Assembly (NCBI RefSeq): GCF_014077095.1 | Contig: NZ_JACGVG010000036.1 | Span: forward strand, 186,001-250,000 | Direction of reading: 5' to 3' | Source of the DNA: Colwellia sp. MB02u-6 | Lineage (GTDB): Bacteria > Pseudomonadota > Gammaproteobacteria > Enterobacterales > Alteromonadaceae | Length of the DNA stretch: 64,000 nucleotides | Shown: positions 27,377 through 60,957 of the stretch, in pieces | Layout: every line of letters starts with the position of its first letter | Position numbering within the stretch: position 1 is the first letter of the stretch | Made by a program: the position numbers and the translations under genes | The notes under the pieces: generated by a model | What the model was told of the DNA's origin: nothing | Databases searched by the model: none | The model's input: only the letters and a program-made list of their open reading frames with translations

Positions 27377-27862
27377 CTAGCGCAAATAGTGAATCGCTTG
27401 ATCAGTCACACATTGAGTAAAGCTTTTTTGTCGCTCTCTCCTTGAAAGCGTAGCGATAGTTTCAGTGACTACCGCCATTTTCTGCTGCTTTTCTGCTAAA
27501 GGTAAGTGACTAAATTGCTCATAAAAACAGGCCTTCAAACCATAATTTAATGCTGTATCTGACTTAGGTGACTCGCCCGCTAAACAAATGATAAGTTGTT
27601 CAGCTAAAGTATTTTTATCTAATTGGGTAATTAAGGCTTTAATCGTTAAACTTTCAGCTTTTTTCTTTTGCTGCTGGCAGCTATAAAGCATATCTGCCAC
27701 CGCAACAATAGGAATAAGTGCCTGATGTTGCGCGCCAAAACGTGCCTTTAACCATTGATTCATCTCAAGTGTTTGGCTCTGCGCTGCTTGCAGCGGTGTA
27801 CTCACCAGCAAGCTAATAAATAAGAAAGCTTTAATTTTATGATTTAACAGTTTGATTTTCAT
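27377..27862 (-). CDS. Secreted protein of unknown function
   Basis: 161 residues from the ATG at 27862 (MKIKLLNHKIKAFLF); a start four codons earlier is possible. It has a signal peptide ending near TPLQA-AQ and about 140 mature residues that are helical, with four cysteines (YSCQQ, ICLAG, KACFYEQ, TQCVTDQ) that could form disulfides in the periplasm. I recognise no family. It is divergent from a periplasmic TlpA-like thioredoxin 150 bp away, which could act on such cysteines, but that link is speculation. Confidence 0.65.
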   Translation of the reverse strand: MKIKLLNHKIKAFLFISLLVSTPLQAAQSQTLEMNQWLKARFGAQHQALIPIVAVADMLYSCQQQKKKAESLTIKALITQLDKNTLAEQLIICLAGESPKSDTALNYGLKACFYEQFSHLPLAEKQQKMAVVTETIATLSRRERQKSFTQCVTDQAIHYLR

Positions 27863-28012
27863 AAGGTATTCCATAACTTATCGACTTCACTCGACTATTG
27901 AAAACGTATCAATGTCGCCATTTCGCAGCCCATTAAATAATAGCGAAACTTTTCTAATCTGGCTTAACGTGGTTAACTAGCTAAAATAAATGCTAATTAG
28001 GTGAACTATACC

Positions 28013-57164: not shown

Positions 57165-57845
57165 TTAATAATAAGCTTCTTTCGCATTGGCTAAGTAAGT
57201 ATTTGCCAAAACTACAAAGTCTTCCATTGGGCCATTTAAATTGCTTGCGGCAATAAATAAGTGCGCGCCAAGTGCATGATGTAATACTTCACTATGATGC
57301 AAAAAAGCGGCTAATGGCCCTTTAATGATGCTACCATCTTTTAAAACGTAAGGTTCAAAATTTAAAATGCCCTGCTCAAAGGTTAGCAATTGATGCTTAA
57401 TACAATAGTGAATCAAGGGCTTTTGTTCGTGGATCATGCGGTTGGCTAAACGCAGAGAGATATTGTCTGCTATGCTATCTATCGAACTTAATTTTATGCC
57501 AACGTAATTTAATTCTTCGCGGTTGATGCCGACTGTATTGCTCACGCAATGTAGGTTGCGGATCTGTTGCCAATTAAGTTGCCAACGACCATGACGATGA
57601 TGAAAAGTTAAGGTTTCAGCTGTCAGGATCAAACTGTATGTGGGTTCAGCTAACTTTAGTAAACCGATAAATATCGTCACTAAGCAAGCGAGGACCATAA
57701 ACATTAGAGGAAAGCGAGCTTGCTGCCAATAATAGCTGCATAGCCAAGCCATAATAAATAAAGCTATAAACCCGGTTAAGGTGATAAATAAACCATGATG
57801 ACGGGCGACAGCTTTAATTTTCATTACATTATTATTTTTTTTCAT
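57165..57845 (-). CDS. Inner-membrane protein, DUF2982-like
   Basis: 226 residues. Two membrane helices near the N-terminus (LFITLTGFIALFIMAWLCSY and FPLMFMVLACLVTIFIGLL) are followed by a PH-like beta domain (YSLILTAETLTFHHRHGRWQ, QIRNLHCV) and a helical C-terminus. The layout fits the DUF2982 family of Alteromonadales, of unknown function; I am only moderately sure of that name. An ATG at 57824 (MKIKAVARHH) is an alternative start. Divergent from arfA. Confidence 0.65.
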   Translation of the reverse strand: MKKNNNVMKIKAVARHHGLFITLTGFIALFIMAWLCSYYWQQARFPLMFMVLACLVTIFIGLLKLAEPTYSLILTAETLTFHHRHGRWQLNWQQIRNLHCVSNTVGINREELNYVGIKLSSIDSIADNISLRLANRMIHEQKPLIHYCIKHQLLTFEQGILNFEPYVLKDGSIIKGPLAAFLHHSEVLHHALGAHLFIAASNLNGPMEDFVVLANTYLANAKEAYY

Positions 57846-57982: not shown

Positions 57983-58186
57983 ATGACAAAGACTAAAGTA
58001 AAAAAACACCAAGGAAATCATGGTGGTTGTGAGTTAGGCCGTGGGGTTATTAAAGATAATTTTTTAGCGGCTATTGTTACGTCAAGATTGTATAAACAGC
58101 AAATAGTTAGCGCTAAAAAAGGTAAGGGTGCTTATCAAAGAACACAAAAACATAAAGGACAAGAGTCCTATTTAATAGCGGTTTAG
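57983..58186 (+). CDS. arfA: Alternative ribosome-rescue factor ArfA
   Basis: 67 residues. GRGVIKDNFLAAIVTSRLY then KKGKGAYQRTQKHKG is the ArfA pattern (IKDN.xeAll...lFr.R...kKGKGsY.R). ArfA recruits RF2 to ribosomes stalled on mRNAs without a stop codon, as back-up to tmRNA. AGTAAAAGG lies before the ATG. The last six sense codons form one arm of a long hairpin and the stop codon lies in its loop (58165-58218), as if the message were built to lose its stop codon. This is how ArfA is placed under tmRNA control in E. coli. Confidence 0.9.
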   Translation: MTKTKVKKHQGNHGGCELGRGVIKDNFLAAIVTSRLYKQQIVSAKKGKGAYQRTQKHKGQESYLIAV

Positions 58187-58218
58187 GCCCTTAGGTTGTA
58201 ACCATTATTAAATAGGGC
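58165..58218 (+). promoter_or_regulatory. arfA 3' hairpin enclosing the stop codon
   Basis: The arm at 58165-58183 (GTCCTATTTAATAGCGGTT) and the arm at 58200-58218 pair over 19 positions with two G-T wobbles and one mismatch. The TAG stop is at 58184-58186, the first bases of the 16-nt loop. TTTT follows, so it may also terminate transcription. RNase III cleavage in the stem would give non-stop arfA mRNA. Confidence 0.75.
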
Positions 58219-58273
58219 TTTTAAGCTTTATACATTTACCTACTGCTGATCGGTGCGTGTTAGCCGAGAGTAA

Positions 58274-59464
58274 TTATGTGTGAACTTTTCTCAGGACTTG
58301 ATTCGCCTTTTCAAGTTGACCTTGGTGCTCAAGAACTTGTGAAAAAGCCAGTAAATCGACTTTATCATAGTGCTTGTCTTCCAAGTTAACTAAGCTGTTA
58401 AATGCCTTTTCTGCTAACAACCATTGCTGTGACACCTTGGCAAGGTGGGCAACCAATGACAACCAAAGAGCATTTTTTGGCGCACTGTATAAGTGTTTTT
58501 GTGCTACTGCCAATAGCTCATCAGCTTGAGTAATAGGTAATGTTCTGACCGCTTTTAGCAGATTGATTGCCGCCCCTTTCTTTATTATTGGCAATAATAA
58601 TTTTGCTAAAGGTGTATTCACTTGGTTTTCTGCTAAGACCTGACAATAAGCAATCACGACTGTTTCTGATTGCTTCACTTTCTTCGGCAGTTGCTGATAA
58701 TAAGCCATCAAAGCATTATGATCATGTTGTTTAATTTGGCTATTAAAAGCGCCGTAAAATGCTTGCTGTTGCCATTGCATTATAGTTTTCAGACTAATCG
58801 ACTTTTGTTTTTCCGCGGTAGTTAACTGCTTAATAACATAGTCAAAACGCTGTTCAATTAAGCTTAACTCTATTTCTAACGATAACAGCCGTGCGTCATG
58901 CCCAATATGCTTATGGTATTGATCAATCACAGTACGTGCTTGTGGGTAATTATGCTGACCGATCAGTAATTTTATTTTAATTAATACCGCTTCTAACCCT
59001 GCGTCTTTTAAGCTGCTAGTGGTTTGTTCTAGCAAAGATAAATAGTGGTCGGTGTTTGGTTTTAACGCTTGTTTTTGCGCAGCATCTGCGGCAACAAGGT
59101 AAGCGATTTGTTCAAAAGATGATGCCTTAGCTGATGATTTAGCTAATAAGTGCTCTGCTTGTTTATAGTCACCTAACACATAGGCTGCAATGCCTTTATT
59201 AAAATCTATCAGCGCACGTCGACGACTAGCAAAAGCAATTTTATTCCAAGCGGCAAAGCTAAAATTTAGCCCACCACGGAAAAATTTAAGGCTAAGCAGT
59301 AAGGTCATAAAAATCAGCGTTAGCATGATAACGCCAGCAACCACAGTTGATTCTATCACCGTTCCACCAAAAGATATTTGCATATAACCAGGGTCACTAA
59401 TGAGTGTTGGAGCAACCGCGACTAATGAGATGATGAAAACGATAAGTATAATTATTTTTATCAT
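58274..59464 (-). CDS. hemY: HemY-like TPR membrane protein
   Basis: 396 residues. Two membrane helices (about 1-20 and 38-60) precede a HemY_N region (SFAAWNKIAFASRRRALIDFN) and tetratricopeptide-like helices (KGIAAYVLGDYKQAEHLLAK). It is a member of the hemCDXY operon in gammaproteobacteria; its exact role in haem synthesis is unclear. It is unrelated to the Bacillus oxidase also called HemY. It overlaps hemX by 4 bp (ATGA). Confidence 0.92.
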   Translation of the reverse strand: MIKIIILIVFIISLVAVAPTLISDPGYMQISFGGTVIESTVVAGVIMLTLIFMTLLLSLKFFRGGLNFSFAAWNKIAFASRRRALIDFNKGIAAYVLGDYKQAEHLLAKSSAKASSFEQIAYLVAADAAQKQALKPNTDHYLSLLEQTTSSLKDAGLEAVLIKIKLLIGQHNYPQARTVIDQYHKHIGHDARLLSLEIELSLIEQRFDYVIKQLTTAEKQKSISLKTIMQWQQQAFYGAFNSQIKQHDHNALMAYYQQLPKKVKQSETVVIAYCQVLAENQVNTPLAKLLLPIIKKGAAINLLKAVRTLPITQADELLAVAQKHLYSAPKNALWLSLVAHLAKVSQQWLLAEKAFNSLVNLEDKHYDKVDLLAFSQVLEHQGQLEKANQVLRKVHT

Positions 59465-60957
59465 GACGCGCCCTCTTGCTGATCAACAGCAACTGGCTCA
59501 GTGACGGTTTCTTTTGATGCTTTAGCCGCACTAGGCTTTACTTTCGAAGGTATCACAAGCTGCTTTTTCTTAGCTAATAACTGTCTAACTGCTGCTAGAG
59601 AATCTAATCTATTCGGGTATTCAGCGCTAATAACTTCGTTTTGTAACTTTAGAATAATATTTGAGAAGCTCTGGTTACCAATATCGGTCATGTCAAAATA
59701 ATCTTTCAGCCAATTATTAATTTCATGTAGCGCTTGTTGATAAACTTCTTGATTCATTTTACTGGCCGCCCATATGGCAGTTTGTAACTTCAAGTTTAAA
59801 TTTTCACGTAAGTTTTGTGTAAATTCGGGAGACATTAATGGCTTCAAATCTGCTGATTTTTTACTAATAGTAAGAAATTTAGCCGTGATACTGTGCCATG
59901 TTTTAGCAAGATTTTCCCGCCAATCACTAGCATTGTCGCTTAATTCAACATCGATTTCTTGGTCATTATTTGCTGAAACATGAGTCTTTGCTAATGGTAA
60001 TTGCTGAGTTTGTTGAGCCAGTGTCATCAGTTTTAAAATAGTGTTATCTGTTGTTAGTGTCGGTAGCAATGCTAGTTTGGCAATATCCTGCTGAATAATT
60101 TGACGCAAGGCGAAAAACTGGGGGTCATTTAATTGTTTAATGCGTAAGTCGGCGTCATTAAGTAAACTAATAGCGGCACTGGTTTCTTTTTCTAACCACA
60201 AGCTTCTTGACGCTACTCGAATCAGGTATTCCGCTTCTTGTAACAACCAATCACTAGGTTGGTTGTTACCTAAACTTGCCACTTGCTGCTGTAATTGTGC
60301 AAGCGTTTCACTGTAACTTTTTGTAAAATCATCAACTTGTTCAAGGTTTTTACGCAGCGTGTTTAGCTCGGTAGTATTGGCTTGTTTACTTTGTGAAAAT
60401 TGCTGAGCAATACGCTGTTTATTGTCTAACAGTTGTTGGGAAATTTGCTGCTGATTTTCGACTAATTGGCGTTTTACAAGCTTATTAAGTTGCAAGCTAT
60501 ATTGAGCTTTTTGTTGTTCACTCCAATAATAGTGACCCGCACTGGCAGCAATAGCTAATAATGCAATAATTAACGCTACCACTGCTGTTTTTGAAATTTT
60601 CTGTGTACTTTGCTGAGTATGGCTGGATGTGCTTTTTTCTGCCAGCGTTGCCGTACCGGCAGTGGTCGACTTGCTTGATGTGCTAGATGTGCTAGATGCG
60701 GTTTTTTTCACAGGTGCTGTGCTCTTATCATGGTTTTTATTTAATGATGGCTGAGTCTCGCTGGTGCCTTGTGCAGCAGTGGCCTTTGTTTTAGCTTTAA
60801 TTATCTTTGGAGCTTTATCTGGAGATTTTTCTGGATTATCGGCCCTTGCCGGTTTATTCAAAGACGCAGATAAGTCGGCTTGATGCTCATCGTGGTTGTC
60901 AACCGCTGCAGTATTATTATCGGCTTTGCTTTGCTCGGGTGGTTTTTTATCGCTCAT
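59461..60957 (-). CDS. hemX: HemX-like membrane protein
   Basis: 498 residues. A polar low-complexity N-terminus of about 120 residues rich in K, S, T and A is followed by one membrane helix (124-143), a glutamine-rich coiled coil (QQQISQQLLDNKQRIAQQF type) and the HemX domain (LLQEAEYLIRVASRSLWLEK). Often annotated as uroporphyrinogen-III methyltransferase, but no SAM-binding motif is seen and that role is doubtful. Between hemD (66 bp upstream) and hemY. Confidence 0.9.
   Translation of the reverse strand: MSDKKPPEQSKADNNTAAVDNHDEHQADLSASLNKPARADNPEKSPDKAPKIIKAKTKATAAQGTSETQPSLNKNHDKSTAPVKKTASSTSSTSSKSTTAGTATLAEKSTSSHTQQSTQKISKTAVVALIIALLAIAASAGHYYWSEQQKAQYSLQLNKLVKRQLVENQQQISQQLLDNKQRIAQQFSQSKQANTTELNTLRKNLEQVDDFTKSYSETLAQLQQQVASLGNNQPSDWLLQEAEYLIRVASRSLWLEKETSAAISLLNDADLRIKQLNDPQFFALRQIIQQDIAKLALLPTLTTDNTILKLMTLAQQTQQLPLAKTHVSANNDQEIDVELSDNASDWRENLAKTWHSITAKFLTISKKSADLKPLMSPEFTQNLRENLNLKLQTAIWAASKMNQEVYQQALHEINNWLKDYFDMTDIGNQSFSNIILKLQNEVISAEYPNRLDSLAAVRQLLAKKKQLVIPSKVKPSAAKASKETVTEPVAVDQQEGAS

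What the first reader, a model, noticed from the sequence alone, without database searches (positions are those of the whole stretch)
58165..58218. arfA message built to lose its stop codon
The last six sense codons of arfA form the left arm of a 19-position hairpin. The stop codon is the first three bases of the loop, and the right arm lies in the 3' UTR, followed by TTTT. In E. coli a hairpin at the arfA 3' end is cut by RNase III, so that the message lacks a stop codon and ArfA is made in quantity only when tmRNA fails (established). The sequence here is quite different from E. coli, yet the geometry is preserved with the stop codon exactly in the loop, which suggests selection on structure.
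Basis: partly seen in the sequence, partly recalled or inferred. Interest (0 to 1): 0.65.

Follow-up and report, generated by a model that had tools for sequence, protein, structure and literature searches.

The report
arfA stop codon trapped in hairpin
A marine bacterium's backup ribosome-rescue gene ends in a long, evolutionarily maintained RNA hairpin that encloses its own stop codon, most likely so that the message is cut and the rescue protein builds up only when the main rescue system fails.

Summary
The same design occurs in 124 of 215 arfA loci analysed, in 19 genera. Compensatory change holds it: 195 double-changed pair cells against 43.7 (maximum 64) when 3' arms are swapped between species. 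So structure is selected. Cutting by RNase III, giving a stop-less message policed by tmRNA, is inferred; rnc, smpB and ssrA are present. It may also be a terminator. New lead: the same arm encodes a C-terminal tail (ESYLIAV here, often ESYL[IM]AA in relatives) resembling the end of this genome's tmRNA tag (ETFALAA). The alanines look held at protein level, so uncut message may also yield a degradable protein. Known kind of control, new variant; the 2012 comparative paper could not be read.

The parts
57983..58186 (+). arfA, 67 codons, stop TAG; alternative ribosome-rescue factor A
   Evidence: Pfam ArfA 5.6e-20; matches ArfA chains of solved structures, residues 19-60, E 3.1e-06
58161..58183 (+). 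left arm of the hairpin: last 23 bases of the reading frame before the stop (codons 60-67)
   Evidence: folds; genus alignment columns 8-30
58184..58186 (+). stop codon TAG, directly after the left arm, in the loop region
   Evidence: in 96 of 124 class loci the innermost coding-UTR pair directly abuts the stop
58184..58199 (+). loop region with a small 4-pair cap in the predicted fold
   Evidence: the loop varies from 3 to 39 nt among the 124 class loci
58200..58222 (+). right arm of the hairpin, in the 3' UTR; last four bases TTTT
   Evidence: compensatory changes
58219..58222 (+). U tract at the base of the right arm, possible intrinsic-terminator element
   Evidence: at least 5 U in 8 nt in 65 of 93 sequences against 10% of background windows; the consensus terminator scan lists no + strand site, but it allows loops of 3-8 only
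58152..58157 (+). left side of a 6-pair outer helix below the main stem (pairs with 58226-58231)
   Evidence: predicted only; conservation not tested
58226..58231 (+). right side of the 6-pair outer helix
58163..58183 (+). codons 61-67, C-terminal ESYLIAV, resembling the end of this genome's tmRNA tag (ETFALAA)
   Evidence: C-terminal composition in relatives

Best explanation
The end of arfA is a built-in off switch. The last 23 coding bases pair with the 3' UTR to form a 23-position stem whose loop holds the stop codon. RNase III most likely cuts the stem, removing the stop, so ribosomes run to a broken end. tmRNA-SmpB then tags the ArfA product for destruction. When tmRNA is missing or overloaded, the untagged shortened ArfA survives. 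It keeps the residues that match the ArfA domain and solved ArfA chains, so it should recruit RF2 to stalled ribosomes. Shown here: the hairpin, the enclosed stop, compensatory evolution, the domain lying upstream of the stem, and presence of rnc, smpB and ssrA. Inferred: the RNase III cut, its position, the tagging and the regulation.
For: Stem and energies. Recurs in 124 of 215 arfA loci, 19 genera; in 118 of 124 it is the best hairpin in up to 220 nt after KGKG, and all 124 form at least 10 spanning pairs when the last 30 nt and up to 75 nt downstream are folded. Covariation: 93 aligned sequences of 18 genera, 91.9% of cells paired, 15 of 23 pairs with double changes, 195 double-change cells against 43.7 (sd 6.7, max 64 of 200) with whole 3' arms swapped; 32 within-genus compensations against 2-5 with partners slid by 1-4 columns. 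Own 3' UTR pairs better (mean -26.4) than UTRs of other genera (-18.5) or upstream coding controls (-10.5). Stem length: 79 of 93 rows form 20-22 of the 23 pairs, which suits RNase III, said to prefer about two helical turns (recalled). E. coli precedent (PMC3989581 and PMC10070815 passages). Relatives with other arrangements also look built to lose the stop. ArfA-matching residues 19-60 end where the stem starts. tmRNA, RNase III and SmpB found.
Against: No transcript, cleavage or protein data were available. The U tract means the hairpin may be a terminator, which alone would leave the stop in place. In the own genus alone the lower stem hardly varies, so most covariation comes from wider comparison. 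The pairing swap test is not clean: only 31 of 123 own UTRs beat all 40 foreign UTRs, 8 of 123 were worse than the foreign mean, and in 2 of 8 genera own was no better than within-genus swaps. The counted alignment was fitted to the own-genus structure, and 7 of the 100 loci searched are not in it.
Confidence: 0.75

Rival explanations
1. The hairpin is only the gene's transcription terminator and 3' stabiliser, moved into the reading frame for compactness. The stop codon is normally used and ArfA is made full length.
For: U-rich base of the right arm: 65 of 93 sequences have at least 5 U in 8 nt, against 10% of background windows. At one stem position U is kept opposite G in 82 of 93 rows, where C would pair better (recalled). 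Compact convergent neighbours hemY/hemX.
Against: A terminator does not need some 22 pairs or a stop in its loop. The left arm keeps its place relative to the stop across genera while the loop varies 3-39 nt. Genera with short terminator-like hairpins put them before the stop, as needed for a non-stop message. E. coli's stem-loop is said to do both jobs (PMC10107115 passage), so terminator activity would not exclude cutting.
Confidence: 0.17
2. Bidirectional terminator between convergent arfA and hemY, selected for symmetry and unrelated to ArfA control.
For: Here the next gene is convergent. By a rough open-frame test 59 of 124 class loci have a convergent neighbour. The hairpin is nearly palindromic, and the model also hits the antisense strand.
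Against: 13 of 124 appear to have a same-strand neighbour, including 5 of 5 in genus g21, and keep the hairpin; 50 of 124 were unclear and 2 too short to judge. Does not explain the fixed position relative to the stop.
Confidence: 0.05
3. Conserved protein sequence (ESYLIAA) alone makes the left arm look conserved, and the pairing is incidental.
For: The tail is strongly conserved, and UTRs of other genera also pair fairly well with it.
Against: The right arm is untranslated, yet tracks changes in the left arm.
Confidence: 0.02

Closest known systems
E. coli arfA non-stop mRNA control (RNase III site inside the reading frame)
   Same: ArfA family protein; 3' stem-loop; shortened product would keep the conserved region; backup to tmRNA
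   Different: In E. coli the whole stem-loop (nt 146-206) is in the coding sequence and the stop is downstream (PMC10070815 passage). Here the stem is half coding, half 3' UTR and encloses the stop. E. coli's full-length tail is described as hydrophobic and unstable (PMC8012679 passage); here it is short and ends in two small residues, like a tmRNA tag.
Bacillus subtilis brfA (terminator inside the reading frame)
   Same: Rescue factor made from a non-stop message and policed by trans-translation (PMC6881298 passages)
   Different: Protein not recognisably related; stop lost by early transcription termination, not by cutting
arfA with a short GC-rich hairpin plus T run before the stop (genera g17, g45, g14, g42, f6.g57, f9.g60 here)
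   Same: Same protein family; message predicted to lack a stop
   Different: Shorter terminator-like hairpin wholly inside the frame
SsrA (tmRNA) degradation tag
   Same: C-terminal E-x-[YF]-x-[ILM]-A-A pattern shared with many ArfA tails
   Different: Encoded in the gene itself; lacks the AND start of the tag; degradation untested; here the last residue is V, not A

Membership tests
ArfA protein family | ArfA domain (PF03889) | tested here: met
   E 5.6e-20, 71 bits, cut-off 25.5
ArfA protein family | Similarity to ArfA chains of solved structures, including the KGKG region | tested here: met
   6 distinct chains, best E 3.1e-06, residues 19-60
ArfA protein family | RF2-dependent peptide release on non-stop ribosomes | not testable with these tools
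   needs biochemistry
Non-stop arfA mRNA control by RNase III | Long stem-loop near the 3' end of arfA, structure under selection | tested here: met
Non-stop arfA mRNA control by RNase III | Position such that a cut removes the stop but leaves the functional domain | tested here: met
   domain 16-58 and solved match 19-60 lie upstream; stop lies inside the stem-loop
Non-stop arfA mRNA control by RNase III | Hairpin wholly inside the reading frame, as in E. coli | tested here: not met
   right arm 58200-58222 is 3' UTR; so filed as a variant
Non-stop arfA mRNA control by RNase III | RNase III, tmRNA and SmpB encoded in the genome | tested here: met
   TIGR02191 E 5.1e-71; RF00023 E 7.5e-86; TIGR00086 E 4.7e-48
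Non-stop arfA mRNA control by RNase III | Actual cleavage in the stem and tmRNA tagging of the product | not testable with these tools
   needs RNA 3'-end mapping and tagging assay
Intrinsic terminator | GC-rich stem followed by a U tract | tested here: inconclusive
   U enrichment met, but the stem is long and AU-rich; the consensus scan lists no + strand site, its loop limit being 3-8
SsrA-like C-terminal degron | Tag-like C-terminus kept by selection on protein | tested here: inconclusive
   112 of 112 loci with the stop 18 codons after KGKG end in two small residues (A, V, S, T or I), 92 of them AA; codons vary; degradation not testable

The most novel reading that the evidence does not exclude
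One stretch of about eight codons works as two locks. As RNA it is half of an RNase III hairpin that removes the stop codon. As protein it is a look-alike of the tmRNA degradation tag (E-x-Y-x-[ILM]-A-A), so that message escaping the cut still yields an ArfA destroyed by the tag-reading protease. ArfA then survives only when it is cut and not tagged, or when the protease is saturated with tagged proteins.
Probability: 0.35. Interest if true: 0.65.

Novelty: new variant of a known kind. Interest (0 to 1): 0.5.

Why it matters
It suggests that arfA lineages reach the same end, a message without a stop, by at least three structural routes, one of which traps the stop codon in the hairpin and is preserved by compensatory change across many, largely marine, genera. 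That argues that making ArfA from stop-less message is itself under selection outside the enteric bacteria. The tag-like tail gives a testable idea of how full-length ArfA is removed where the E. coli hydrophobic tail is absent.

Tried and rejected
I used 48 ORFs of the window and a model search of the whole genome (150 of 4,864 first-look candidates scored) instead.

First folding pass read '-' strand loci in the wrong orientation, so rows such as L003 and L004 there are meaningless; redone with strand detection.

The model search matched both strands because the hairpin is nearly palindromic: 190 matches, of which the best 150 were aligned; only the 93 sense rows at the arfA end were counted. 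7 of the 100 loci given to that search are absent from the 93: L193, L202 and L214 have no listed match; L021, L022, L208 and L213 have one at the arfA end that ranked below the best 150. The count therefore leans to the better matches. The 100 were chosen from 121 distinct hairpins of 124 class loci: 106 after thinning genera g18 and g38, then L133 (cut by contig end) and five more (L111, L114, L122, L125, L126) dropped.

The class of 124 was defined by stop distance and by C-terminal residues, so its C-terminal counts are circular; the count of 112 loci defined only by stop distance is used for the tail. f1.g14 was excluded from the class because its one match (L037) is of the terminator type.

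Classing by the single most stable hairpin is noisy: L029, L061 and L182, of genera with hairpins before the stop, fold as stop-spanning with at least 10 pairs.

Does the ArfA tail follow changes in the local tmRNA tag? No sign, on two genomes: where the tag has F (own genome; G061 of g46) the ArfA tail keeps Y. The E of the tail may be older than any tag likeness, since other ArfA types have W-E-A or W-E-P at a similar place (by eye).

Literature: Schaub et al. 2012 (PMC3436202) and Garza-Sanchez et al. 2011 (PMC3103599) are not held, so I cannot say whether hairpins enclosing the stop are already in print there. Searches listed no paper whose title or abstract start, as shown, describes it; only passages of nine papers were read.

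Full report
What is there. arfA lies at window 57983-58186 on the + strand, 67 codons, ending in TAG. It is an ArfA protein by Pfam (5.6e-20, residues 16-58) and by match to ArfA chains of solved structures (residues 19-60, E 3.1e-06). DUF2982 (57165-57845, minus) lies upstream and divergent; hemY-like (58274-59464, minus) and hemX-like (59461-60957, minus) genes lie downstream and convergent. The closest named relative of the protein among the 53 loci found is Colwellia sp. MB3u-45 (94% identity; that search may leave out the window's own record).

The hairpin. 58161-58183 pairs with 58200-58222: 22 of 23 positions, one C/A mismatch at 58179/58204. The stop codon 58184-58186 begins the loop. 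Energy -31.0 kcal/mol for 58158-58226 (z -6.0) and -35.6 for 58150-58235 (z -7.5); 0 of 200 shuffles were as good in each. 0 of 48 non-overlapping window ORFs of at least 100 aa reach its stop-spanning pairs or duplex energy; 15 of 11,610 background windows reach its duplex energy. A covariance model of the hairpin from the own genus finds this site in the whole genome at E 5.5e-16, its antisense at 2.2e-7, and nothing else below 0.3, with 150 of 4,864 first-look candidates scored. The model was built with this sequence in it, so the low E for the site itself is expected; the point is the absence of others.

Relatives. ArfA was found in 16 of 17 genomes of the genus, 157 of 395 of the family and 72 of 197 of the order. 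I analysed 215 loci, not all that were found: 16 from the genus search, 130 from the family search and 69 further ones from the order search. An ArfA frame was found in 215 of 215 by a profile grown from the own protein. Three arrangements follow genus lines. (S) The hairpin encloses the stop: 124 loci in 19 genera with the same kind of tail, including the own genus (16 of 16 loci), Colwellia, Pseudoalteromonas, Thalassomonas, Paraglaciecola and Psychrobium (names by matching contig lengths by eye), plus a differently built version in f25.g85 and f10.g61. (E) The hairpin lies inside the frame before the stop, as in E. coli. Five records of Neptuniibacter, Marinobacterium, Motiliproteus and Bermanella also fold as type S. 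Classing by the single most stable hairpin is not perfect: 6 of 124 class loci have another hairpin as the most stable one in the stretch, and L029, L061 and L182 of genera with hairpins before the stop come out as spanning.

Selection on structure. Within the own genus (16 sequences) 94.0% of cells pair, against 92.3% after shuffling and 37-57% when slid; 4 pairs have double changes, against 1.1. The lower stem hardly varies there, so this alone is weak. Across 93 sequences of 18 genera, aligned by the own-genus model, 91.9% of cells pair, 15 of 23 pairs show double changes, and there are 195 double-change cells against a mean of 43.7 (sd 6.7, max 64 of 200) when whole 3' arms are swapped; without the own genus 168 against 41.3. 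The swap does not keep relatedness, and such an alignment leans towards the structure. Sliding the partners by 1-4 columns gives 29-53% paired and 23-44 double-change cells. Counting only within genera, which limits shared ancestry, there are 32 genus-by-pair compensations against 2-5 slid; without the requirement that 70% of the genus be paired there are 36, in 10 genera and 14 pairs. An alignment-free test agrees: own UTR -26.4 kcal/mol on average, UTRs of other genera -18.5, upstream coding control -10.5; own better than the foreign mean in 115 of 123, better than all 40 foreign UTRs in 31 of 123; against within-genus swaps, own better in 6 of 8 genera and no better (by 0.1) in two.

Position of the stop. 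In 96 of 124 loci the innermost coding-UTR pair directly abuts the stop; in 69 of 124 no stop base is paired, and in 15 of 124 all three are; the loop ranges from 3 to 39 nt. So 'the stop sits at the top of the stem' is the conserved feature, not a particular loop.

How it most likely works. RNase III cuts the stem and takes away the stop; the ribosome stalls at the broken end; tmRNA-SmpB tags the product; only when that system fails does shortened ArfA persist. The ArfA-matching residues end at residue 58-60, where the stem starts. The genome has RNase III, SmpB and tmRNA. This is the E. coli scheme (passages of PMC3989581, PMC10070815, PMC8012679), but with another geometry: in E. coli the stem-loop is nucleotides 146-206 inside the frame (PMC10070815 passage). 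The cut itself is inferred. One paper says that tmRNA control of ArfA is well conserved among species with arfA, citing Schaub et al. 2012 (PMC11721466 passage), and a review says that the Pseudomonas aeruginosa hairpin is shorter than known RNase III substrates (PMC13159725 passage).

Terminator function. The base of the right arm is U-rich: at least 5 U in 8 nt in 65 of 93 sequences against 10% of background windows, and U is kept opposite G at one position in 82 of 93. The hairpin may therefore also end transcription, as stated for E. coli (PMC10107115 passage). If that were all, the stop would stay in the message; this is the main rival.

The tail. Defined only by stop distance (18 codons after KGKG), 112 loci in 15 genera all end in two small residues (A, V, S, T or I), 92 of them AA, and 107 of the 112 have the stop-spanning hairpin as the main one; 1 of 48 other window ORFs ends in two residues from A and V. 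These loci are related, so they are not 112 independent cases. The pattern E-x-[YF]-x-[ILM]-[AV]-[AV] ends 103 of 215 loci, 17 genera. The own tmRNA tag is ANDETFALAA; the 30 tmRNAs read, of 59 family genomes with a match, have AND[DE][NT][YF]A[LI]AA. Among distinct codons within genera, the last codon shows 17 synonymous against 8 amino-acid differences and the next 25 against 26; all four Ala codons and all four Val codons occur at the second-last position. At that codon's middle base C is kept in 86 of 93 sequences although in 44 of those it is not paired (43 mismatched, 1 gap). So alanine seems to be held for the protein, not for the stem. A degradation signal is the natural guess, because E. 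coli full-length ArfA is described as unstable through its hydrophobic C-terminus (PMC8012679 passage). It remains a guess: this window ends in AV, the tail does not follow local tag changes in the two genomes compared, and the glutamate may be an older ArfA feature.

Verdict. New variant of a known control, strongly supported as a selected structure, mechanism inferred.

Noticed in passing
window 27377-27874 (-): A 165-codon ORF with no Pfam family has the strongest stop-spanning pairing of the 48 window ORFs examined besides arfA (-21.5 kcal/mol; 26 spanning pairs, tied with one other ORF).
   Followed up: no
genera g17, g45, g14, g42, f6.g57, f9.g60 (e.g. L023, L031, L171): arfA carries a short GC-rich hairpin, often with a T run, inside the frame, like an internal terminator, while other genera of the same family (e.g. 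g5, Paraglaciecola) have the stop-enclosing type.
   Followed up: partly
f25.g85 (L155-L157, L160, L162, L164, L166, L170, L195) and f10.g61 (L172): Hairpins that enclose the stop but with a different tail (ending in C, as VCC, or in KLH); in the two f25 loci and one f10 locus looked at the stems are GC-rich and the stop is in an internal loop or the cap.
   Followed up: no
family-wide: ArfA is patchy: 157 of 395 family genomes have a match, and one of 17 genus members (G003) has none.
   Followed up: no
L067:725-802 (-): A second match to the hairpin model (E 1.7e-4) away from the arfA end in this Colwellia-group locus.
   Followed up: no
L228 and L232 (MAG DT_4): One MAG carries two arfA-like loci.
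   Followed up: no
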